A stretch of 64,000 nucleotides of DNA from positions 2,108,001 to 2,172,000 of the forward strand of contig NZ_WMDZ01000001.1 in the NCBI RefSeq assembly GCF_021735935.1. Direction: 5' to 3'. The position numbers and the translations under genes were made by a program. The notes beneath the pieces were generated by a model that ran no database searches, was not told the DNA's origin, and worked only from the letters and a program-made list of their open reading frames with translations. The stretch is from Sulfitobacter sp. M39. Its GTDB lineage: Bacteria; Pseudomonadota; Alphaproteobacteria; Rhodobacterales; Rhodobacteraceae. How positions within the stretch are numbered: position 1 is the first letter of the stretch; every line of letters begins with the position of its first letter. Shown one piece after another: positions 1 to 39,911 of this stretch.

Positions 1-1
1 A

Positions 2-697
2 CAGATACAAGAGGTTACCATCCCGCCGATGCGCATGGCCGACGCCGTGGCCGACGGGTTCGTCGATGCCTTCTGGGTCGGCGAGCCTTGGGGCGGCGTG
101 GCGGTTCAACGAAATGTCGCCCGGTTGATGATGGCAGGGCGGGATGTCTGGCAGTTCGCACCGGAAAAGGTTCTGGCCGCGCGTCACGACTGGATCGCGT
201 CCAACCCCGACAGCGTACGACGCCTGATGCGGTCGGTATATCAGGCCGCCGCATGGCTTGACGCGCCCAAGAACAAGCCGCTGGCCGTAGAGATTTTGGG
301 CCGCAGCGAACATCTAAGCGTGTCGCAAGACCTTATTGATCCCGCTTTGACAGGGCATATCGCACCGAGCCATAACGCCAACCCCATCGCCGTCGACCGT
401 TTTTTGCAATTCCACAACCATGCTGCATCATTTCCTTGGCGCAGCCAGGCAGCCTGGATCGCCCATCATCTTGGAGCCGACGCTGCGGGGATCGAAAAGG
501 CAAAGGCGTGCTTCCGCTCTGATCTGTACCGACAGAATCTGTCCGATATCGGGGCCGATATGCCCGGTGCCTCTGAAAAAGAGGAGGGCGCATTAACCAC
601 ACCAACAGCCGTTGCCTCGTCACGGGGGCAGATGGTTCTTTCGCCGGATGCCTTCTTTGACGGCAAGATGTTCGATTTCAGCGCAAACAAGCGATGA
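2..697 (+). CDS. nasS: NasS-like nitrate sensor / NrtA-family protein, 5' end cut off by the window
   Basis: The frame is open from the first bases, so about 230 C-terminal residues are seen and the start lies outside. The protein matches the periplasmic-binding fold of the NrtA/CmpA family, with motifs such as [11 protein letters not shown] and an APEKVL segment paralleling GEPWNQQAV and NPEKVFG in the downstream NrtA. It precedes nrtA and a leader with ANTAR-type hairpins. In Paracoccus and Azotobacter, NasS is a cytoplasmic NrtA homologue that holds the antiterminator NasT until nitrate or nitrite binds. The N terminus is absent, so lack of a signal peptide cannot be tested. A second periplasmic nitrate-binding protein is the alternative. 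Confidence 0.7.
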
Positions 698-736
698 AAT
701 ATCAGGCGCTCTCTGCACCGCCGCACGAAATGATGC

Positions 737-759
737 GGCAATGCAGAAAATTCATTGCC
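737..759. promoter_or_regulatory. Inverted repeat upstream of the nitrate operon leader
   Basis: GGCAATG (737-743) and CATTGCC (753-759) form perfect 7-bp arms around a 9-nt spacer. The repeat lies 40 bp after the nasS-like stop and just upstream of the candidate promoter. No T-run follows, so a protein-binding site is more likely than a terminator. The regulator is not known. Confidence 0.35.
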
Positions 760-794: not shown

Positions 795-861
795 GGGCAA
801 CGTTGCCCGACATACTGCGCTGACCAATGCTGGTCGCACATCACTCAGAGCAATGCCGCTC
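795..861 (+). promoter_or_regulatory. Three tandem hexaloop hairpins: probable NasT (ANTAR) antitermination element
   Basis: Three short hairpins stand 26-27 nt apart. The first has stem GGGC/GCCC and loop AACGTT (795-808). The second has stem GACC/GGTC and loop AATGCT (822-835). The third has stem GAGC/GCTC and loop AATGCC (848-861). Every loop is six nucleotides with A at position 1 and G at position 4, the signature of RNAs bound by ANTAR-domain antiterminators such as NasT. The third hairpin shares bases with the 5' arm of the following terminator, so the two cannot form together. A pair of such hairpins is the usual arrangement; three is unusual. Confidence 0.7.
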
Positions 862-918
862 GTACGGAACACGGATCTCTTTCCCCCGTGGACCATACGT
901 GCGGCATTTTTTGTTTTT
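852..918 (+). terminator. Leader terminator (attenuator) upstream of nrtA
   Basis: AATGCCGC (852-859) pairs with GCGGCATT (901-908). Inner helices CGTA/TACG, GG/CC and CACGG/CCGTG extend the hairpin almost to its centre near 881. A T-rich tract follows at 907-918. It lies 30-40 bp before the nrtA start, inside the transcript, so it should stop transcription unless the overlapping hairpin at 848-861 is stabilised. This fits nitrate-dependent NasS/NasT antitermination. Confidence 0.75.
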
Positions 919-947: not shown

Positions 948-2318
948 ATGAAGAACTCCCTTGCACTTCTGCTCGCCTCGACAAGTCTGCTGGCGACGGC
1001 GGCGTCGGCCGAAATGCTGGCGCTCGAGAAAGAGGAGCTGACCTTTGGCTTTATCAAGCTGACCGATATGGCACCTTTGGCCGTGGCCTACGAGCTGGGC
1101 TACTTTGAGGACGAAGGGCTTTTCGTCAGGCTTGAGGCGCAGGCCAACTGGAAAGTGCTGCTGGACGGCGTGATCGACGGCCAATTGGACGGCGCGCATA
1201 TGCTGGCGGGCCAACCGCTGGCGGCAACGATCGGCTATGGCACCAAAGCGCATATCATCACGCCCTTCTCGATGGACCTGAACGGCAATGCGATCACCGT
1301 TTCCAATGACATCTGGGACGAGATGAAGCCGAACGTGCCCACGATGGACGATGGTCGGCCGCAGCATCCCATCAGCGCCAGTGCTTTGGCTCCGGTGGTC
1401 GAAGGCTACAAGGACCGCGGCGAGCCGTTCAATATGGGCATGGTCTTTCCCGTTTCGACCCACAACTACGAGATACGCTATTGGCTCGCGGCTGGCGGCT
1501 TGAAGCCCGGCTATTACAGCTCGCAGGATATCTCGGGGCAGATTGATGCGGATGTTCTGCTGTCTGTGACGCCACCACCACAGATGCCTGCCACGATGGA
1601 AGCGGGAACCATCTCTGGCTACGCAGTGGGGGAGCCTTGGAACCAGCAAGCGGTTTTCAAAGGGATCGGCGTGCCGGTGATCACCGACTACGACATGTGG
1701 AAAAACAACCCCGAGAAGGTCTTTGGCATCACCGCCGAATTCGCCGAAGAAAACCCCAACACCACGCTGGCCTTGACCAAGGCATTGATCCGCGCCGCCA
1801 TGTGGCTGGACGAGAATGACAACGCCAACCGCGAGGAAGCGGTGGAGATGCTGTCGCGGTCCGAATACGTCGGCGCGGATGCCGAAGTGATCGCAAATTC
1901 AATGACCGGCTTTTTCGAGTTCGAAAAAGGGGATGTGCGCCCCGCCCCCGACTTCAACGTCTTCTTCCGCTACAATGCGACCTTTCCGTTCTATTCAGAC
2001 GCGATCTGGTATCTGACCCAGATGCGTCGCTGGGGCCAGATCGACGAGACAAAGCCGGATGAATGGTATTTCGAGACGGCTGCAGACGTGTATCGCCCGG
2101 ACATCTACCTGCAGGCCGCAAGGCTGCTGGTGGACAAAGGTATGGCCGACGAAGCGGCGTTTCCTTGGGATAGCGACGGCTTCAAAGCACCGACACCGGC
2201 TGCCGATATCATCGACGGGATCAGCTACGACGGACGCGCACCGAACGCCTATATCGACAGCCTGCCCATCGGTCTGAAGTCCGGTCAAACGGTCATCGAC
2301 AGCAAGGTCGAAGGCTAA
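948..2318 (+). CDS. nrtA: Nitrate ABC transporter substrate-binding protein NrtA
   Basis: A 456-residue periplasmic nitrate-binding protein of the NrtA/NasF family. A signal peptide ([21 protein letters not shown]) is followed by the mature domain, which begins [34 protein letters not shown] and [14 protein letters not shown] are typical of the nitrate/bicarbonate-binding branch. The ATG at 948 is chosen because it starts the signal peptide and has an AAAGGA ribosome site upstream. The same frame stays open far upstream without homology. First gene of the nrtAB-ATPase-nirBD-nasA-cysG operon, behind the attenuator leader. The Rhodobacterales version lacks the lipoprotein cysteine of cyanobacterial NrtA. 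Confidence 0.92.
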
Positions 2319-2398: not shown

Positions 2399-3472
2399 AT
2401 GACCGCGATTGACACAAACACACTCGATATCGAAGCCCGCCGCGCGCGGCGCTTTGCCCGGATCAACAAGGCCGACGCATGGTTCAGCGTCTTTGGCCTG
2501 TCTTGGATGACACCGATCCTGAAAGCCGCCGCGGGGGATAATCCGCGCGCGCAGGCCGGCGAGATCTGGCGGCTTCTGGGCGTGCCGCTCTTGGCAATTG
2601 CGATCTTCCTGACCCTCTGGGCAAGCTTGGCCCCCAAGGTTCAAACCTCTCTCGGGGCTGTGCCCGGCCCTGCCCAAGTCTGGGAGCAGGTGGGCGAGTT
2701 GCATCAGGACGCCATCCGCGAGGGCGAACGCGAAGCCGCCTTCTACGAGCGGCAAGAGGCGCGCAACGCAAAGCATATCGCAAGTGGCAACACAGATCGT
2801 GTGCGTGATCGCGCCTATACAGGCAAGCCAACCTACTACGACCAGATCTGGACCTCGATCAAAACGGTGCTTTTCGGTTTTCTCATTGCGTCGATCGTTG
2901 CGATCCCATTGGGCATCGCTGCGGGCTTGTCTGTAACAGCGAATGCGGCGCTGAATCCGCTGATACAGATCTTCAAACCGGTCTCGCCACTGGCATGGCT
3001 GCCCATCGTGACCATGATCGTATCAGCCGTCTATAGCACCAATGACGGTATGTTCTCCAAGTCGTTCCTCATTTCGGCGATCACTGTTACGCTCTGCTCG
3101 CTCTGGCCCACGCTGATCAACACATCCCTTGGCGTCGCCAGCATCGACAAGGATCTTGTCAGCGTCAGTCGCGTGCTGAAAATGAATACCTATACCAAGA
3201 TCACCAAACTGGTGCTGCCCTCGGCGCTGCCATTGATCTTTACCGGGCTGCGGCTGTCGCTTGGTGTAGGCTGGATGGTTTTGATCGCGGCGGAAATGCT
3301 GGCGCAGAACCCCGGGCTTGGAAAGTTCGTCTGGGACGAATTCCAGAACGGCAGCTCGCAAAGTCTGGCGCGGATCATGGTCGCGGTGCTGACCATCGGC
3401 ATCATCGGCTTCCTTCTGGACCGTGTGATGTATGCGCTCCAGTCCATGTTCACCTTCTCGAATAACCGGTGA
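2399..3472 (+). CDS. nrtB: Nitrate ABC transporter permease NrtB
   Basis: A 357-residue inner-membrane permease of the NrtB/SsuC/TauC type. It has an N-terminal cytoplasmic segment and a first membrane helix near residues 60-80 (LLGVPLLAIAIFLTLWA). A hydrophilic loop follows, then the permease core with VLFGFLIASIVAIPLGI and the EAA-like loop TKITKLVLPSALPLIFTGLR that contacts the ATPase. It presumably works as a homodimer with the double-ATPase protein encoded next, whose alternative start overlaps its stop codon. Family length is usually 270-350, so the N terminus is at the long end. Confidence 0.9.
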   Translation: MTAIDTNTLDIEARRARRFARINKADAWFSVFGLSWMTPILKAAAGDNPRAQAGEIWRLLGVPLLAIAIFLTLWASLAPKVQTSLGAVPGPAQVWEQVGELHQDAIREGEREAAFYERQEARNAKHIASGNTDRVRDRAYTGKPTYYDQIWTSIKTVLFGFLIASIVAIPLGIAAGLSVTANAALNPLIQIFKPVSPLAWLPIVTMIVSAVYSTNDGMFSKSFLISAITVTLCSLWPTLINTSLGVASIDKDLVSVSRVLKMNTYTKITKLVLPSALPLIFTGLRLSLGVGWMVLIAAEMLAQNPGLGKFVWDEFQNGSSQSLARIMVAVLTIGIIGFLLDRVMYALQSMFTFSNNR

Positions 3473-5142
3473 TCGATATGGGTATCTTGAACTTCAACAA
3501 TGTCACCAAAACCTATGGCACCCAACCCGTTCTCAAGGACATCTCCCTTGAGGTTGCCGAAGGTGAATTCGTCGTCATCCTCGGGTTTTCGGGCACCGGC
3601 AAGACCACGTTGATCAATCTGATGGCGGGGCTTGAGCAGCCGACCTCGGGCAGCGTGACCTACAAGGGAAAGCCCATCACCGAACCGGGCCGCGAACGCG
3701 GTGTGATCTTTCAGAACTATTCGCTGATGCCGTGGCTGACGGTGCAGGGCAACGTCAGGCTTGCTGTCGATACGATGTTTCCTGATCTCTCCAAACTCGA
3801 ACGGGCGGCCAAGGTCGATCACTATGTCAACATGGTGGGCCTGTCCCATGCGGCCACGCGCCGCCCTGCTGAATTGTCCGGTGGGATGCGCCAGCGGGTC
3901 AATGTGGCACGCGCCCTGGCGATGGATCCCGAAATGCTGCTGCTGGATGAGCCGCTGTCGGCGCTCGACGCCCTGACCCGCGCCAATCTCGCGGATGAGA
4001 TCGAGGCGATCTGGGACGAAGACAAGAAAACTTGCGTCCTGATCACCAATGATGTGGATGAAGCGATCATTCTGGCGGATCGGATCATCGCCCTTAATCC
4101 GGACGGCACGCTTGGGGACGCATTCAAAGTCGACATTCCCCGCCCCCGCGACCGGATTGCGATGAACAATGACGCGGCATTCAAGGCGCTGCGTGGGCAG
4201 GTCACGACCTATCTGATGGACATCGGTATCGCGTCAAAGCTCGAAGGGTCGCGGATACTGCCTAACGTGACGCCGATACATGCGACCCCCGCTGCCATGG
4301 CCAAGGCGCAAGAGGGCGGTTTGGAAGAAAGATACCTGAATTTCTCGCAACTGGACAAAGTCTATCCAACGCCCAAGGGACCGCTGACCGTGGTCGAAAA
4401 CTTTGACCTCAAGATCAACAAGGGCGAATTCGTCTCGCTGATCGGGCATTCGGGCTGTGGGAAATCGACGGTTCTGACAATGGCGGCGGGGCTTAACCCG
4501 ATCTCGAAAGGGGCGATCAAGCTGGACGGGTGGAACGTCGAAGGCGCGGACCCGGAACGCGCGGTGGTCTTTCAGTCTCCTAATCTGTTCCCGTGGTTAT
4601 CCGCCAAGGAGAACGTCGCCATTGGTGTCGACAAGGTCTATCCCCGCGCGTCGCAGGCCGAGCGTCAGGACGTCGTCGAATACTACCTTGAACGGGTCGG
4701 GCTGGCCGACAGCATGGACAAGAATGCCGCCAGCCTGTCAAACGGGATGAAGCAGCGCGTGGGCATCGCGCGCGCCTTTGCGCTGTCGCCCAAACTACTG
4801 CTGCTGGATGAACCTTTCGGCATGCTTGACAGTCTCACCCGGTGGGAGCTTCAAGAAGTCCTGATGGAGGTCTGGTCGCGCACCAAAGTCACGGCGATCT
4901 GCGTGACCCATGACGTGGACGAGGCGATCTTGCTGGCCGACCGTGTTGTGATGATGACCAACGGTCCGCAAGCGACCATCGGCAAGATCACGGACGTAAA
5001 ACTGCCCCGTCCGCGCACGCGCAAGGCGCTGTTAGAACATCCCGATTACTATGCGTACCGGCAGGAAGTGCTCGATTTTCTTGAAGAATATGAACACGGC
5101 GCGAAACCGAAACCCAAAGCAAAACCCATAGCAGCGGAGTGA
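3469..5142 (+). CDS. Nitrate ABC transporter ATP-binding protein with two fused ATPase domains
   Basis: A 557-residue protein with two complete ABC ATPase modules. The first has Walker A GFSGTGKTT, signature LSGGMRQRVNVARAL and Walker B LLLDEPLSALD. The second has GHSGCGKST, LSNGMKQRVGIARAF and LLLDEPFGMLD. Cyanobacteria encode these as separate NrtC and NrtD, and NrtC also carries a nitrate-binding C-terminal domain that is absent here. The two cassettes should energise one NrtB dimer. The GTG at 3469 overlaps the nrtB stop; an ATG at 3478 in the same frame (MGILNFNN) is an equally good start. Nitrite or cyanate could also be substrates, but nirB follows directly. Confidence 0.88.
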   Translation: MIDMGILNFNNVTKTYGTQPVLKDISLEVAEGEFVVILGFSGTGKTTLINLMAGLEQPTSGSVTYKGKPITEPGRERGVIFQNYSLMPWLTVQGNVRLAVDTMFPDLSKLERAAKVDHYVNMVGLSHAATRRPAELSGGMRQRVNVARALAMDPEMLLLDEPLSALDALTRANLADEIEAIWDEDKKTCVLITNDVDEAIILADRIIALNPDGTLGDAFKVDIPRPRDRIAMNNDAAFKALRGQVTTYLMDIGIASKLEGSRILPNVTPIHATPAAMAKAQEGGLEERYLNFSQLDKVYPTPKGPLTVVENFDLKINKGEFVSLIGHSGCGKSTVLTMAAGLNPISKGAIKLDGWNVEGADPERAVVFQSPNLFPWLSAKENVAIGVDKVYPRASQAERQDVVEYYLERVGLADSMDKNAASLSNGMKQRVGIARAFALSPKLLLLDEPFGMLDSLTRWELQEVLMEVWSRTKVTAICVTHDVDEAILLADRVVMMTNGPQATIGKITDVKLPRPRTRKALLEHPDYYAYRQEVLDFLEEYEHGAKPKPKAKPIAAE

Positions 5143-5147
5143 GCGAT

Positions 5148-7574
5148 ATGACCCAGAAACTGATCGTCATCGGTGCAGGCATGGCCACGGGCCGCATGCT
5201 GGAGCATCTTTTTGACGCGGGCGCAGATTACGATGTGACACTGTTCAACGCAGAGCCTCGCGGGAACTACAACCGGATCATGCTGTCTCCGGTTTTGTCC
5301 GGCGACAAGACCTATGCAGAGATCGTGACCCATGATGACACATGGTACGCAGCGCAAGGCGTGACCTGTCGTTTCGGCGAACGCATCGCCACGATCGACC
5401 GTGCGGCCAAGACGGCGACCGCGCAAAATGGTGATGTGCTGCCTTATGACAAGCTGGTGTTCGGAACCGGGTCGAACCCGTTCATGATCCCGCTGCCAGG
5501 GCACGATTTGGAAGGGGTGATCGCCTACCGAGATCTGGAAGACACAACCCGCATGATGGATCTGGGGCCGGCCAATAAATGTGTGGTCATCGGCGGTGGC
5601 CTGCTGGGGCTAGAGGCTGCGGCAGGCATGGCCGCACGCGGTGTCGACGTCACCGTCGTGCATATCATGGGCCACCTGATGGAGCGACAGCTGGACGAGG
5701 CCGCGGGCTATCTGCTTCGCCGCGCATTGATTGACAAGGGGATCACCGTCAAATGCGCGGCCAATTCCAAGGAAATTCTAGGCGAAAACGGCCACGTCCG
5801 TGCGTTGCTGCTGGACGACGGGACAGAGCTGCCTTGCGATCTGTTGGTCATGGCCGTCGGGATCCGCCCCAATGTGCAGTTGGCCCAAGATACAGGGCTA
5901 GCGGTCGGCAAGGGGATCCATGTGGACGACCAGATGCTGACCTCTGACGCTGATGTGCTGGCTGTGGGTGAATGCGTCGAACATAACGGCGCGATCTTTG
6001 GTCTGGTGGCACCGCTCTACGACCAAGCCAAAGTTGCCGCGCAGACGCTGATGGGAGAGCAAGCGCAGTTCGTGCAAAAGGAAATCTCGACCAAACTCAA
6101 GGTCACGGGCTGCGACCTGTTCAGCGCGGGTGATTTCGCCGACGGGGAAGGGCGCGAGGATATCGTGTTTCGCGATCCGGCGCGCGGGGTCTACCGCCGT
6201 TTGGTGATCGAAAACAACATTGTGCTGGGTGCGGTGATGTATGGCGACACAGCCGACAGCAACTGGTTCTTTGGCCTGATACGCGACAAGACCGACATCG
6301 CGGACATGCGCGATACGCTGATTTTCGGCCCGGCCTACCAAGGGGGGACCCCCCTGGACCCTTTAGCAGCTGTTGCAGCCTTACCGCGTGACGCGGAGAT
6401 CTGTGGCTGCAACGGTATCTGCAAAGGACAAATTGAAGACGCCATCGCGGCGGGCGCCTCTGATCTGGGCGCGATCAAAGCGACGACCAAGGCCAGCGCA
6501 TCCTGCGGGACGTGCACCGGGCTGGTCGAACAGGTACTGGCGGTCACGCTGGGGGATGATTTCGTCTTGCCTGCGGCGGCGTCGATCTGCGGCTGCACCG
6601 ACATGACCCACGAAGATGTGCGGCGGATGATCAAGTCGCAGCGACTGACCTCGATGCCAGCAGTCTGGCAGGAATGCGGGTGGAAGACGCCCGACGGCTG
6701 CCATGTCTGCCGCCCTGCGTTGAACTTCTATCTGCTGGCTGATTGGCCGCTGGAATATCGCGATGATCCGCAATCGCGTTTCATCAACGAACGCAAACAC
6801 GCCAACATCCAGAAGGACGGCACCTACAGCGTCGTGCCCCGCATGTGGGGTGGGATCACCACGCCGGACGAACTGCGTGCTATTGCCGATGCGGCGGATA
6901 AATACATGGTGCCGACGGTCAAGGTCACCGGCGGGCAGCGGATTGACCTATTGGGCGTTAAAAGCGAAGACCTGCCAGACATCTGGGCCGATCTGAACGC
7001 GGCCGGCATGGTGTCAGGACATGCCTACTCCAAAGGGCTGCGCACGGTCAAAACTTGTGTCGGCACGGATCATTGCCGCTTTGGTACTCAGGACAGCACC
7101 GGTCTGGGCATCCAGCTTGAGAAAGAGCTCTGGGGGGCCTGGACGCCGCATAAGCTGAAACTCGGGGTGTCGGGCTGCCCGCGCAACTGCGCCGAAGCGA
7201 CCTGCAAGGATATCGGCGTCATCTGTGTCGACAGCGGCTATCAGATCAGCATCGGCGGGGCGGCCGGTATGGACGTCAGGGAAACCGAATTGCTGATCCA
7301 AGTGCCGACCGAGCAAGAAGCGATCAACGTGATCAAGGCGGTGACGCAGCTGTATCGCGAGAATGCCAAATACCTTGATCGCATCTACAAATGGATGGCC
7401 AAGGTCGGTCTGGACTGGATCAAGGAACGGGTTGCTGCCGAAGGCGACGCTTTGGTTGATCGCTTCGAGCTGAGCCAGACGATCTACCGCAAAGACCCGT
7501 GGGCCGAACACGTGACCCAGCAGGCCGAGCGCTACAAACCCCTTGCAAACCTGTCACTGGAGGCTGCTGAATGA
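5148..7574 (+). CDS. nirB: Assimilatory nitrite reductase [NAD(P)H], large subunit
   Basis: An 808-residue enzyme reducing nitrite to ammonium with six electrons from NAD(P)H. Domain order: FAD/NAD(P)H disulfide-oxidoreductase fold (VIGAGMATGRML near residue 5), two BFD-like [2Fe-2S] regions near residues 415-540 (CGCNGICKG...CGTCTG and CGCTDMTHED...CHVC), then the ferredoxin-like and siroheme/[4Fe-4S] domains. The cluster cysteines are in CVGTDHC (near 637-643) and CPRNC (near 676-680), the C-x5-C and C-x3-C pattern. ATG 5148 is preferred because GGAG stands about 8 nt before it; a GTG at 5139 is possible. cysG at the operon end supplies its siroheme. Confidence 0.95.
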   Translation: MTQKLIVIGAGMATGRMLEHLFDAGADYDVTLFNAEPRGNYNRIMLSPVLSGDKTYAEIVTHDDTWYAAQGVTCRFGERIATIDRAAKTATAQNGDVLPYDKLVFGTGSNPFMIPLPGHDLEGVIAYRDLEDTTRMMDLGPANKCVVIGGGLLGLEAAAGMAARGVDVTVVHIMGHLMERQLDEAAGYLLRRALIDKGITVKCAANSKEILGENGHVRALLLDDGTELPCDLLVMAVGIRPNVQLAQDTGLAVGKGIHVDDQMLTSDADVLAVGECVEHNGAIFGLVAPLYDQAKVAAQTLMGEQAQFVQKEISTKLKVTGCDLFSAGDFADGEGREDIVFRDPARGVYRRLVIENNIVLGAVMYGDTADSNWFFGLIRDKTDIADMRDTLIFGPAYQGGTPLDPLAAVAALPRDAEICGCNGICKGQIEDAIAAGASDLGAIKATTKASASCGTCTGLVEQVLAVTLGDDFVLPAAASICGCTDMTHEDVRRMIKSQRLTSMPAVWQECGWKTPDGCHVCRPALNFYLLADWPLEYRDDPQSRFINERKHANIQKDGTYSVVPRMWGGITTPDELRAIADAADKYMVPTVKVTGGQRIDLLGVKSEDLPDIWADLNAAGMVSGHAYSKGLRTVKTCVGTDHCRFGTQDSTGLGIQLEKELWGAWTPHKLKLGVSGCPRNCAEATCKDIGVICVDSGYQISIGGAAGMDVRETELLIQVPTEQEAINVIKAVTQLYRENAKYLDRIYKWMAKVGLDWIKERVAAEGDALVDRFELSQTIYRKDPWAEHVTQQAERYKPLANLSLEAAE

Positions 7575-7906
7575 CGAGCTGGATTGATATCGCAGCGCTT
7601 GATGATGTGCCACAGCGCGGTGCGCGGATGATCAAGACCGCGCTTGGCTGTGTCGCGGTGTTCCGCACGGCTGAGGATGAAGTCTTCGCGCTTGATAATG
7701 CCTGTCCGCACAGGGCGGGGCCGCTGGCCGAAGGCATCGTCCATGGCAAATCCGTAACCTGCCCGCTGCATAACTGGGTGTTCTCGCTCGAGACCGGAGA
7801 GGCGCAGGGCGCGGACGAGGGCCGTGTCGCGACCTATCCGGCGCGGGTGGAAAGCGGGCGCATCCTGCTGGACCGGACGTTCCTGCAAGCGCGGAGCGCC
7901 GCATGA
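7571..7906 (+). CDS. nirD: Nitrite reductase [NAD(P)H], small subunit
   Basis: A 111-residue Rieske-like protein that associates with NirB. Both cluster motifs are intact: CPHRAGPLAEG (C-x-H) and CPLHNW (C-x2-H), around residues 41-66. In many NirD proteins the ligands are lost and the subunit is structural; here a [2Fe-2S] centre looks possible. It overlaps nirB (ATGA) and nasA (ATGA), so the three are probably translationally coupled. Confidence 0.93.
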   Translation: MTSWIDIAALDDVPQRGARMIKTALGCVAVFRTAEDEVFALDNACPHRAGPLAEGIVHGKSVTCPLHNWVFSLETGEAQGADEGRVATYPARVESGRILLDRTFLQARSAA

Positions 7907-10479
7907 CCCTAACGCGCACCACTTGCCCTTATTGCGGTGTCGGTTGCGGTGTGCTGGCGGCTTCCGATGGCACGATCAAGGGCGATCCGGATCATCCGGC
8001 GAACTTCGGGCGGTTATGCTCCAAAGGCGCTGCCTTGGGGGAAACCATTGATCTGGACGGGCGGCTTCTGCATCCGCAGATCAACGGGGCGCAGGCGGAT
8101 TGGGATACCGCGCTTGATCTGGTGGCGCAAAAATTCAGCGATGCCATCGCAACGCATGGGCCGGAAAGCGTGGCTTTTTACGCCTCGGGCCAGATGCTGA
8201 CCGAAGACTATTATGTCGCCAACAAGCTGATGAAGGGGTTCATCGGGGCGGCCAATATCGACACGAATTCACGTCTGTGCATGGCGTCCTCTGTCGCCGG
8301 ACACAAGCGTGCCTTCGGCACTGATACCGTTCCCGGCACCTATGAAGATTTGGAACAGGCCGATCTGGTCGTGCTTGTCGGCTCCAATCTGGCGTGGTGT
8401 CATCCGGTTTTGCACCAGCGTATTGCCGCAGCGAAAGAAGCGCGCCCCCATATGCGGATCGTCAATGTCGATCCGCGTCGCACGGCCACCTGCGATCTGG
8501 CGGATGTGCATCTGAGGATCGTCCCCGACGGGGATGTTGCCTTGTTCAACGGGTTGCTGGCCTATCTGGCAGAGACCGGAAAACGCGACACGTCCTATAC
8601 GGAAAACCATGTGAATGGGCTGGAAGCGGCACTGGTGGCTGCGCAGGCCAGTGATCCGGCGGACAGCGGGCTAAATGCTCAGGAACTGGCTGATTTCTAT
8701 GCGCTTTGGGCAAACACGCCCAAAGTCGTCACCGCGTACTCCCAAGGCGTCAACCAATCGGTCTGCGGCACAGACAAAGTGAACGCGATCCTGAATTGCC
8801 ATCTGGCCACAGGACGCATCGGCAAGGCGGGGATGGGCCCGTTCTCATTGACCGGCCAGCCCAATGCCATGGGCGGACGCGAGGTCGGCGGTCTGGCCAA
8901 TATGCTGGCCAATCACCTCGATCTGGAAAATGAGGCACACCGGGATACGGTACGGACTTTTTGGCAAAGCCCGACGATCTGCACCAAACCGGGGCTAAAG
9001 GCTGTCGATCTTTTCGAAGCCTGTGCCGACGGGCGGATCAAGGCACTGTGGGTCATATCCACCAACCCCGCGGTGTCGCTGCCCGATGCCGATGGCGTGG
9101 CAGCAGCAATTGCAAATGTGCCCTTTGTTGTTACGTCTGACATCATGGAGAAGACGGATACCAACGATCTGGCGAATGTCCTGCTGCCCGCCACGGGCTG
9201 GGGTGAAAAAGACGGCACCGTGACCAACTCAGAACGCCGCATTTCGCGCCAGCGCGCCTTTCTACCCGCCCCCGGTGAGGCGCGGCCCGACTGGAAGATC
9301 ATCAGCGACGTGGCCACGCGTATGGGGTTTGCGGATGCCTTTTCCTATGGCTCATCCGCAGATGTCTTTGCCGAATATGTCGCGCTTGATCAGGCGGCTT
9401 CGGCCTTCCCGCGCGACCTTGATCTGAGCATTTTTGCCGATGCGGATTACGCGAAAATGGTGCCGACCCAATGGCCGCGCAACGGGGCGCGTTTCTTTGC
9501 CGACGGGCAATATTATCATCCTGACGGGAAGGCGCAGATGGTTGCCGTGACATCGCCCGTGTCGCAGAACTCACGCTTTACGCTCAATACCGGACGGAAC
9601 CGCGACCAGTGGCACACGATGACGCGTACGGGTAAATCGGCGCGGCTTGGGGCACATCTGGCCGAACCCTATGTAGAGATTAACCCAGTTGATGCCGCCG
9701 CGTTGGGGGCACTCCCCGGAGCGTTGATCGCGCTGCAAAACAGCCGTGGTCGCGTTTTGATGCGCGCGTTGATCACCCCGCGCGTCGTCCAAGGCGCGTT
9801 GTTCGCGCCAATGCACTGGACACGTCAGCGCAGCACCGCGGGCACGGTCAATAGCGTCATGACGCCGCTGACCGATCCGATTTCAGGTCAACCCGCCTTG
9901 AAGGCCAGCGCGGTCACTGCCGAGGTTTTTAAGGCCAAATGGTATGGCTTTCTGGCAAGCGTCGCGGAACCCGCGCCGCAAACCGCCTATGCCGCCGTGG
10001 CCCGCACCAATACCGGCTGGCAGGCAGAGCTGGCGGGCAGCAAAAACCCCGAGGATTGGGAGGCCCAGGCCCGCCTTCTGACGGGGCAGGCGGAGGGTGA
10101 TCTGTCGCTCCAGTCCGACGCGGCAACCGGCGGCGTTCGGATTGCGATAACCAAGGGCGGGCGGATCACCGGGCTGCTTTTCGTATCCCCCAATCCGGTG
10201 GTCGTATCGCGCGGTGCGATTATCGCGCTGCTCGGGACGGACACATCGGCGTTGGCGGCGCTCGCTGGGCGCAACTCCTCTGACCGGCCGGACCCGGGTG
10301 CTACGGTCTGTGCCTGTTTTGATGTGGGGCGCAACACCTTGCTGGCCGCGATCGCCGGCGGGGCCTCTACCGTCGCGGCCTTGGGCGATGCCACCTGCGC
10401 GGGGACAAACTGCGGGTCGTGCAAACCCGAACTCGCAGTGCTGTTGGATCAAGCCTTGCAACGGATGGCCGCAGAATGA
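7903..10479 (+). CDS. nasA: Assimilatory nitrate reductase catalytic subunit
   Basis: An 858-residue molybdenum enzyme that reduces nitrate to nitrite in the cytoplasm. CPYCGVGCGV near residues 6-15 starts the [4Fe-4S]-binding domain and is followed by the bis-MGD oxidoreductase core. Residues from about 800 form a BFD-like [2Fe-2S] domain (CACFDVGRN...CAGTNCGSC), as in Klebsiella NasA. It has no Tat signal, as expected for an assimilatory enzyme. No separate NasB/NasC electron-transfer gene is seen within the operon. It overlaps nirD and the next gene by four bases each. Confidence 0.94.
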   Translation: MTLTRTTCPYCGVGCGVLAASDGTIKGDPDHPANFGRLCSKGAALGETIDLDGRLLHPQINGAQADWDTALDLVAQKFSDAIATHGPESVAFYASGQMLTEDYYVANKLMKGFIGAANIDTNSRLCMASSVAGHKRAFGTDTVPGTYEDLEQADLVVLVGSNLAWCHPVLHQRIAAAKEARPHMRIVNVDPRRTATCDLADVHLRIVPDGDVALFNGLLAYLAETGKRDTSYTENHVNGLEAALVAAQASDPADSGLNAQELADFYALWANTPKVVTAYSQGVNQSVCGTDKVNAILNCHLATGRIGKAGMGPFSLTGQPNAMGGREVGGLANMLANHLDLENEAHRDTVRTFWQSPTICTKPGLKAVDLFEACADGRIKALWVISTNPAVSLPDADGVAAAIANVPFVVTSDIMEKTDTNDLANVLLPATGWGEKDGTVTNSERRISRQRAFLPAPGEARPDWKIISDVATRMGFADAFSYGSSADVFAEYVALDQAASAFPRDLDLSIFADADYAKMVPTQWPRNGARFFADGQYYHPDGKAQMVAVTSPVSQNSRFTLNTGRNRDQWHTMTRTGKSARLGAHLAEPYVEINPVDAAALGALPGALIALQNSRGRVLMRALITPRVVQGALFAPMHWTRQRSTAGTVNSVMTPLTDPISGQPALKASAVTAEVFKAKWYGFLASVAEPAPQTAYAAVARTNTGWQAELAGSKNPEDWEAQARLLTGQAEGDLSLQSDAATGGVRIAITKGGRITGLLFVSPNPVVVSRGAIIALLGTDTSALAALAGRNSSDRPDPGATVCACFDVGRNTLLAAIAGGASTVAALGDATCAGTNCGSCKPELAVLLDQALQRMAAE

Positions 10480-39821: not shown

Positions 39822-39911
39822 TGGCGGAGAGACAGGGATTCGAACCCTGGGAACCCGTGAAGGCTCAACGGTTTTCGAGACCGCCCCGTTCGACCACTCC
39901 GGCACCTCTCC
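39822..39911 (-). tRNA. tRNA-Ser (anticodon CGA)
   Basis: A 90-nt class II tRNA on the minus strand. The acceptor GGAGAGG pairs with TCTCTCC, followed by G and an encoded CCA (39822-39824). The anticodon loop is CTCGAAA, giving CGA, which reads UCG. A long variable arm and a T-loop GGTTCGAATCC are present. Confidence 0.95.

What the first reader, a model, noticed from the sequence alone, without database searches (positions are those of the whole stretch)
795..918. Three-hairpin ANTAR leader wired to a terminator before nrtA
Three evenly spaced hairpins (26-27 nt apart) each carry a hexaloop with A1 and G4, the known ANTAR-target signature, and the third shares bases with the 5' arm of a long terminator. 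NasT-type leaders are described with two such hairpins. A third, in a Rhodobacterales operon that also carries a NasS-like gene, could change the stoichiometry or give graded control.
Basis: partly seen in the sequence, partly recalled or inferred. Interest (0 to 1): 0.7.

Follow-up and report, generated by a model that had tools for sequence, protein, structure and literature searches.

The report
Three-hairpin nitrate-operon RNA switch
The RNA leader of this marine bacterium's nitrate-uptake operon carries three, not the textbook two, look-alike hairpins for the nitrate-released protein NasT, and relatives across its family keep a three-hairpin layout, which suggests that the accepted two-hairpin picture of this switch is incomplete.

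Summary
Window 795-861 holds three hexaloop hairpins with A1 and G4 (loop starts 799, 826, 852); no other such triple lies in the window, and 0 of 5000 shuffles give one. The third shares its loop and 3' arm with a strong terminator. nasT and nasS lie directly upstream, so this is very probably a NasT antitermination leader. The middle hairpin, H2, is the departure from the two-hairpin scheme. H2 also covaries in the window's 57-member clade. With its loop chosen by folding alone, G4 is kept in 109 of 131 leaders, against about 15 in shuffles. A strict A1/G4 hexaloop in H2 is commoner than chance (43 of 142) but not the rule. A second alphaproteobacterial family has three strict hexaloops in 16 of 26 loci. 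Against: a third family has widely spaced pairs with no stable middle hairpin (5 of 5). Verdict: a new, conserved variant of the ANTAR dual-hairpin antiterminator. That NasT binds all three hairpins, or is relayed between them, is inferred and untested.

The parts
795..808 (+). H1: upstream ANTAR-type hairpin, GGGC(AACGTT)GCCC, hexaloop A1/G4
   Evidence: sequence; per-leader shuffle p about 0.01; family-wide covariation score 0.678 vs 0.237 shuffled
821..836 (+). H2: middle ANTAR-type hairpin, (U)GACC(AAUGCU)GGUC(G), hexaloop A1/G4
   Evidence: sequence; H2 covaries in the window's clade; loop G4 kept in 109 of 131 leaders vs about 15 shuffled; alone p=0.11
848..861 (+). H3: antiterminator hairpin, GAGC(AAUGCC)GCUC, hexaloop A1/G4; loop and 3' arm are also the terminator 5' arm
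   Evidence: sequence, folds, alignment A1
852..912 (+). intrinsic terminator: stem 852-908, T run 907-912
1..697 (+). 3' part of nasS (nitrate sensor, NrtA-like); the whole gene is L001:1677-2822, preceded by nasT L001:1096-1680 outside the window
   Evidence: the name nasS rests on its place behind nasT and its homologues next to ANTAR genes in the records
948..2318 (+). nrtA-like substrate-binding protein, first gene behind the leader
   Evidence: ORF from the ATG at 948; only weak SsuA_fam similarity, 29.2 bits, below that model's cut-off of 163.5; 34% identical to NasS over NasS residues 6-305
2399..3472 (+). nrtB-like nitrate ABC permease
   Evidence: TIGR01183 1.8e-45, below its curated cut-off (155.2 vs 209.05 bits)
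3469..5142 (+). fused nrtC/D-type ATPase, two ABC domains
   Evidence: TIGR01184 9.9e-180
5139..7574 (+). nirB, nitrite reductase large subunit
   Evidence: TIGR02374 2.3e-250
7571..7906 (+). nirD, nitrite reductase small subunit
   Evidence: TIGR02378 8.2e-30
7903..10479 (+). molybdoenzyme, by context the assimilatory nitrate reductase (nasA/nasC type)
   Evidence: best hit TIGR01591 Fdh-alpha 1.1e-127, then NF047855 NasC 1.1e-112, both below their cut-offs

Best explanation
A NasT-dependent transcription attenuator in front of nrtA-nrtB-nrtCD-nirB-nirD-nas, with three ANTAR hairpins in a row. Without nitrate, NasS holds NasT, the 3' half of H3 pairs into the terminator, and transcription stops at 907-912. 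With nitrate, NasT is freed, loads on H1 and/or H2 as they leave the polymerase, and is passed to H3 in time to stabilise it against the terminator. The H1-H3 linker (809-847, 39 nt) is longer than spacings known to work in EutV leaders. H1-H2 and H2-H3 are each close to ordinary two-hairpin spacing, so H2 most likely works as a stepping stone, or second landing site, rather than as filler. Shown: the hairpins, their conservation and covariation, the H3/terminator exclusion by folding, and nearby nasT/nasS. Inferred from relatives: nitrate release of NasT, antitermination. Inferred here only: the role of H2.
For: Genome: ANTAR gene 1.6e-22 next to nasS, directly upstream. NasT aligns with EutV and NasR and keeps the EutV RNA contacts R142, K143, K149, E160, Y164 and M172 (K147 is R; N173, R175, R177 differ) by the alignment, with a two-residue numbering offset that I inferred. 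H3 and the terminator exclude each other in folding. An H1-H3 pair with terminator was picked in 97 of 110 leaders (a few, such as L016, L082 and L103, look misassigned). H1 covariation; H1 beats shuffles at p<=0.05 in 83 of 97. H2: covariation 0.398 vs 0.198 shuffled and at most 0.151 slid, 57 leaders, sequence-only alignment; gap folds -8.6 vs -5.9 kcal/mol shuffled; G4 109/131, purine-1 plus G4 105/131 (shuffled means 15.4 and 7.8), strict A1/G4 hexaloop 43/142 (shuffled mean 1.9, maximum 5 in 40 sets). Spacing: H1-H2 is 27-29 in 46 of 87 and H2-H3 is 19-22 in 53 of 87, against 18-24 for 7 of the 11 pairs found outside the family. A second family has three strict hexaloops in 16 of 26 loci, with covariation. 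Literature: NasT binds nasA leader RNA and is released from NasS by nitrate in Paracoccus (PMC3795266, abstract and passages); adding 20 nt between EutV hairpins abolishes antitermination, and a hand-over from P1 to P2 is proposed (PMC8934654, passages).
Against: H2's loop is loose: A or G at position 1, 7-nt loops in 38 of 131, no G4 in 22 of 131. On alignment A1, where the window's clade is misaligned, the H2 pairs score above shuffles (0.161 vs 0.112) but below the same structure slid by one column (0.216), and RNAalifold on A1 omits H2. Singly, only 18 of 90 gaps reach p<=0.05. In family f13, 5 of 19 loci have pairs 47-51 nt apart and none of these 5 has a stable middle hairpin (gap folds 0.0 to -4.1 kcal/mol), so wide spacing may work without H2. 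I saw no binding or transcription data for this organism.
Confidence: 0.6

Rival explanations
1. H2 is only a structural spacer: it folds the long linker so that H1 and H3, the true NasT pair, come to a workable distance. NasT does not touch H2.
For: H1 and H3 loops are mostly A1/G4 (A1 in 134 and 138 of 142), H2 often is not (H1 and H3 were selected for A or G at position 1 and G4, so this is partly by construction); the gap folds better than shuffles.
Against: A spacer need not keep G4: 109 of 131 vs about 15 in shuffles, and G4 is the base flipped into the ANTAR domain in EutV (PMC8934654, passages). The other family has strict A1/G4 in the hairpin next to the antiterminator as well as in the outer one.
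Confidence: 0.22
2. H2-H3 is the ordinary dual-hairpin target, at ordinary spacing, and H1 is an added upstream landing site that raises local NasT concentration.
For: H2-H3 spacing (26 in the window, mode 21 in the family) is nearest to the 18-24 seen in 7 of 11 pairs elsewhere; in L141 and L153 H2 is strict A1/G4 while H1 has G1.
Against: H1 is better conserved and more strongly covarying than H2, unlike a dispensable extra.
Confidence: 0.25
3. An ordinary dual-hairpin leader with a third hairpin by chance.
For: Short hairpins are common: 143 A1/G4 hexaloop hairpins in the window on both strands; window H2 alone p=0.11.
Against: 0 of 5000 shuffles give the triple; H1 and H2 both covary across genera.
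Confidence: 0.03
4. The inverted repeats act as DNA sites for a protein rather than as RNA.
For: Inverted repeats can be operators; NtrC control of nas genes is known in Paracoccus (PMC5424462, passages).
Against: Hairpin stems vary by compensatory change while loop letters stay, the pattern of RNA; H3 overlaps a terminator on the transcribed strand.
Confidence: 0.02

Closest known systems
ANTAR dual-hairpin antiterminator (EutV/eutP, NasR/nasF, AmiR/amiE; PMC3369931, PMC3369936, PMC8934654)
   Same: Hexaloops with A1 and G4, stems of at least 3 bp, last hairpin overlaps the terminator, ANTAR protein encoded next door, nitrogen-metabolism operon.
   Different: Three hairpins instead of two; outer pair 39 nt apart (809-847), beyond the 5-12 nt of E. 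faecalis eut leaders (PMC3369931, passages) and the 2-25 nt used for actinobacterial ANTAR RNAs (PMC8164766, passages).
NasS-NasT control of nas genes in Paracoccus denitrificans (PMC3795266, PMC5424462; passages)
   Same: nasT-nasS-leader-structural gene order; leader hairpin needed for nitrate induction.
   Different: The passages that I read name two mutated hairpins, HI and HII; I could not map them. The P. denitrificans leader in L283 has AACGGC, AATGAT and GACGAT hexaloops 25 and 23 nt apart, but I saw no T-run terminator overlapping the third.
EutX / Rli55 sRNA (as mentioned in PMC8934654, passage)
   Same: A dual hexaloop motif plus one additional single hexaloop with G4: the only printed case of three such loops that I met.
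   Different: A small RNA said to sequester EutV, not an operon leader with three evenly spaced hairpins.

Membership tests
ANTAR target RNA (dual-hairpin antiterminator) | At least two hairpins with hexaloop A1 and G4, stems of at least 3 bp | tested here: met
ANTAR target RNA (dual-hairpin antiterminator) | Last hairpin overlaps and excludes an intrinsic terminator | tested here: met
   by folding only
ANTAR target RNA (dual-hairpin antiterminator) | Exactly two hairpins at short linker | tested here: not met
   three hairpins; linkers H1-H2 about 12-13 nt and H2-H3 about 11-12 nt, H1-H3 39 nt; hence filed as a variant
ANTAR target RNA (dual-hairpin antiterminator) | Cognate ANTAR protein in the genome | tested here: met
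   an ANTAR gene lies next door; that it is the cognate one is inferred from position
ANTAR target RNA (dual-hairpin antiterminator) | ANTAR protein binds it and prevents termination | not testable with these tools
   no experiment
NasS-NasT system | nasT next to nasS, upstream of nitrate genes | tested here: met
NasS-NasT system | Nitrate dissociates NasS from NasT | not testable with these tools
   known in P. denitrificans (PMC3795266, abstract and passages)
Any Rfam 15 family | Covariance-model match at gathering score | tested here: not met
   window: only a tRNA at 39825-39911; 650-1000 down to E=10: three weak hits between 675 and 769, none on the hairpins; 20 relatives: only a tRNA

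The most novel reading that the evidence does not exclude
Alphaproteobacterial NasT leaders form a separate class of ANTAR target, a three-hairpin ladder, in which NasT dimers step or load from H1 through H2 to the antiterminator H3. It arose or was kept in at least two families, and the 'dual hexaloop' definition misses it.
Probability: 0.35. Interest if true: 0.7.

Novelty: new variant of a known kind. Interest (0 to 1): 0.55.

Why it matters
How an ANTAR dimer uses two hairpins that it apparently cannot hold at once is an open question (PMC8934654 proposes a hand-over). A natural three-rung version with a rung that varies between genera (A1, G1, 6 or 7 nt) gives a ready set of variants for testing hand-over against simultaneous binding. 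It also means that searches built on the dual-hairpin rule and linker limits may mis-annotate NasT targets in a large marine bacterial family. Practical weight is modest: the regulator, signal and output are already known in kind.

Tried and rejected
Rejected: H1 as the non-conserved extra (searches show the opposite). Chance triple. Another copy in this genome: model R1 gives only this leader at E 3.5e-5; the next three (E 0.35, 0.80, 3.6) look like chance, L136 lying inside a reading frame on the opposite strand and L137 between two convergent reading frames (L138 not checked for ORFs). RNAalifold on A1 found H1 and H3 but not H2, and the H2-only count on A1 was weak, because A1 misaligns H2 in the window's clade; A4 was made for that clade. 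Sigma-70 promoter scan of 640-1000: 0 found. Class and phylum searches: of 36 NasS-query loci held from outside the family, 11 gave a hairpin pair with terminator; in the rest no leader was recognised within the 1.5-kb flanks. Seven further outside hits were not fetched.

Rows dropped before counts: of 122 family genomes with a NasS match I took 110. A1 uses 88 of 90 segments (L016 and L081 left out, hairpins misassigned), from 97 of 110 leaders with H3. The 142 set is 190 leaders (110 plus the best 80 named loci) minus 32 without H3 or H1 minus 16 duplicates. H1 and H3 were selected for purine-1/G4 loops and a stem, so their loop counts are not evidence; H2 was not so selected. opens inner pairs until the loop has at least 6 nt before reading position 4; shuffles went through the same steps. 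Shuffled controls of the pair counts do not keep relatedness. Tree: quick method, SH-aLRT only, NasS protein, some long branches. On re-checking for this report I folded the f13 gaps and lowered the main confidence from 0.62 to 0.60 for that.

Papers: PMC5424462, PMC3369931, PMC6759348, PMC8164766, PMC8934654, PMC3795266: found passages (with abstract text where these held the terms); PMC3369936: first of two parts of the text; PMC7496416 and the rest: search listing only. Statement that I found no three-hairpin ANTAR leader in print rests on searches, 88 of an open-licence library; supplements and subscription papers (for example Azotobacter and Pseudomonas NasT work, recalled) were not seen.

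Full report
WHAT IS THERE. The window begins inside nasS (stop at 697) and the next gene is an nrtA-like substrate-binding protein starting at 948. Between them are three hairpins with hexaloops that start with A and have G at position 4: 795-808, 822-835 and 848-861, loop starts 27 and 26 nt apart. Only one such triple exists on either strand of the 64 kb, and 0 of 5000 dinucleotide shuffles of 698-947 reproduce it. The loop and 3' arm of the third hairpin are also the 5' arm of a terminator, 852-908 with T run 907-912. The fold of 845-914 is -32.9 kcal/mol (z -5.64) against -4.0 for the third hairpin alone; in the fold of 789-914 the first two hairpins stay and the third is replaced by the terminator. 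The 77-nt stretch 789-865 alone forms the three hairpins but is not unusually stable (z -1.20).

GENOME CONTEXT. The window is G000:C1:2108001-2172000. One of the two ANTAR genes found in the genome lies immediately upstream: nasT at L001:1096-1680, overlapping nasS at L001:1677-2822. The order is nasT-nasS-leader-nrtA-nrtB-nrtCD-nirB-nirD-nas. NasT matches Rv1626, EutV, NasR and AmiR. By that alignment it keeps residues that contact the flipped G4 in EutV (R142, E160, Y164), also K143, K149 and M172; K147 is R; N173, R175 and R177 differ (residue names from PMC8934654, with a two-residue offset that I inferred). The nearest named relatives of this nasS include an uncultured Rhodobacteraceae bacterium (81%), Litoreibacter, Loktanella, Octadecabacter and Yoonia.

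RELATIVES. NasS was found in 122 of 295 family genomes. I took 110 leaders, one per genome. A hairpin pair H1-H3 with terminator was picked in 97 of 110, loop distance 45-56 in 84 of the 97; a few picks look wrong. With H3 fixed, H1 beats shuffles at p<=0.05 in 83 of 97 leaders. Sequence-only alignment of 88: H1 covariation score 0.678, shuffled 0.237, slid at most 0.214, and 6 of 7 pairs with changes on both sides.

THE MIDDLE HAIRPIN. In many relatives H2 is not a textbook ANTAR loop. To avoid picking loops by motif, I folded only the stretch between H1 and H3 in 142 distinct leaders and read the loop of the main hairpin. 131 have a 6- or 7-nt loop. Position 4 is G in 109 and position 1 is a purine as well in 105; 40 sets of shuffled gaps gave means of 15.4 and 7.8 (maxima 25 and 12). 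A strict A1/G4 hexaloop occurs in 43 of 142 (shuffled mean 1.9, maximum 5). Mean gap energy is -8.6 against -5.9 kcal/mol. On a NasS tree the window lies in a 57-row clade (SH-aLRT 100) where H2 is an A1/G4 hexaloop in 26 and a G1/G4 hexaloop in 22; in the group of 79 beside it (SH-aLRT 82) the commonest state is a 7-nt loop with G4 (31 of 79). On a sequence-only alignment of the 57, H2 pairs covary: 0.398, shuffled 0.198, slid at most 0.151. Results against: the window's own H2 is unremarkable alone (p=0.11), only 18 of 90 gaps reach p<=0.05 singly, on the broad alignment A1 the H2 pairs score below the structure slid by one column (0.161 vs 0.216), and RNAalifold on A1 omits H2.

SPACING. 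From loop start to loop start, H1-H2 is 27-29 in 46 of 87 and H2-H3 is 19-22 in 53 of 87 leaders. Outside the family, 11 of 36 NasS-query loci gave a recognisable pair with terminator: 18-24 in seven and 41-49 in four. So H1-H3 in this family is about twice the usual distance, with a third ANTAR-like hairpin at about the usual distance. In E. faecalis eut leaders the linker is 5-12 nt, lengthening to 14 nt cut induction drastically (PMC3369931, passages), and adding 20 nt abolished antitermination in vitro (PMC8934654, passages).

OTHER FAMILIES. In the family of G571 (f66, unnamed, same class), 16 of 26 loci have three strict A1/G4 hexaloop hairpins at about -55, -22 and 0, three more have a pair, and seven have none. 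Most of these genomes are of one genus. In L261 the leader lies between nasT and nasS. On 19 aligned leaders 97.5% of cells pair (covariation 0.279, shuffled 0.136, slid at most 0.150), and the outermost helix has 9 and 6 double changes at two of its pairs. In family f13, 9 of 19 loci show a pair, one of them (L238) a strict triple. Five have the wide spacing of 47-51, and none of these five has a stable middle hairpin (gap folds 0.0 to -4.1 kcal/mol). That speaks against H2 being required whenever spacing is wide.

HOW IT MOST LIKELY WORKS. Known for P. denitrificans: NasS and NasT separate on nitrate, and NasT binds the nasA leader (PMC3795266, abstract and passages); replacing hairpin HI of that leader in the chromosome abolished growth on nitrate (PMC5424462, passages). 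Known for EutV: two binding sites per RNA, a dimer at each hexaloop, and a proposed hand-over from a recruitment hairpin to the antiterminator hairpin (PMC8934654, passages). Put together with the anatomy here: freed NasT loads on H1 and H2 during transcription and is handed to H3, which then blocks the terminator. Shown here: structures, conservation, exclusion of H3 by the terminator in folding, neighbouring regulator genes. Inferred: binding, hand-over, nitrate response. I hold the leader's identity as a NasT attenuator at about 0.93 and direct NasT contact with H2 at about 0.6.

KNOWN OR NEW. No Rfam 15 family matches the leader at gathering score or the 20 relatives' loci searched, and the three weak hits at E up to 10 do not lie on the hairpins. 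Ten paper searches listed no description of a three-hairpin ANTAR leader that I could recognise; the nearest is a remark that the EutX small RNA has one additional hexaloop besides its dual motif (PMC8934654). The library lacks most subscription papers and I could not see supplements. I file it as a new variant of a known kind.

Noticed in passing
window 713-746: Imperfect inverted repeat CTGCACCGCCGCA (713-725) / TGCGGCAATGCAG (734-746) just after the nasS stop; similar TGCAGCA-type repeats stand at about the same place in several relatives (by eye). Possibly a DNA operator or part of a nasS-nrtA promoter.
   Followed up: no
L002:1099-1698 (G000:C1 near 1227328): A second ANTAR gene lies between a substrate-binding-protein-like gene and a DppC-like permease gene, resembling an AmiC/AmiR-type amide or peptide operon (names from reading the translations, not from a family search).
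   Followed up: partly
G055 (same genus as the window): The one genus-mate searched has no NasS match at 1e-30, so the nas operon seems patchy within the genus.
   Followed up: no
L141 and L153 leaders: H1 loop has G1 (GAAGGT, GATGTT) while H2 is a strict A1/G4 hexaloop (AATGGC, AATGAT), as if the two upstream hairpins could trade the strict role.
   Followed up: partly
L283 (Paracoccus denitrificans), 129-183 after the nasS stop: Three ANTAR-like hexaloops AACGGC, AATGAT, GACGAT 25 and 23 nt apart, but no obvious T-run terminator overlapping the third; the experimental organism may differ from most of its family.
   Followed up: partly
L109 leader, and L095, L096, L102: A subgroup with a differently built third hairpin (TGGC(AACGAC)GCCA type); L095, L096 and L102 have a CCGC(AAAGAT)GCGG-type middle hairpin, L109 GGCCGC(AAGGGC)GCGGCC; again three strict hexaloops.
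   Followed up: no
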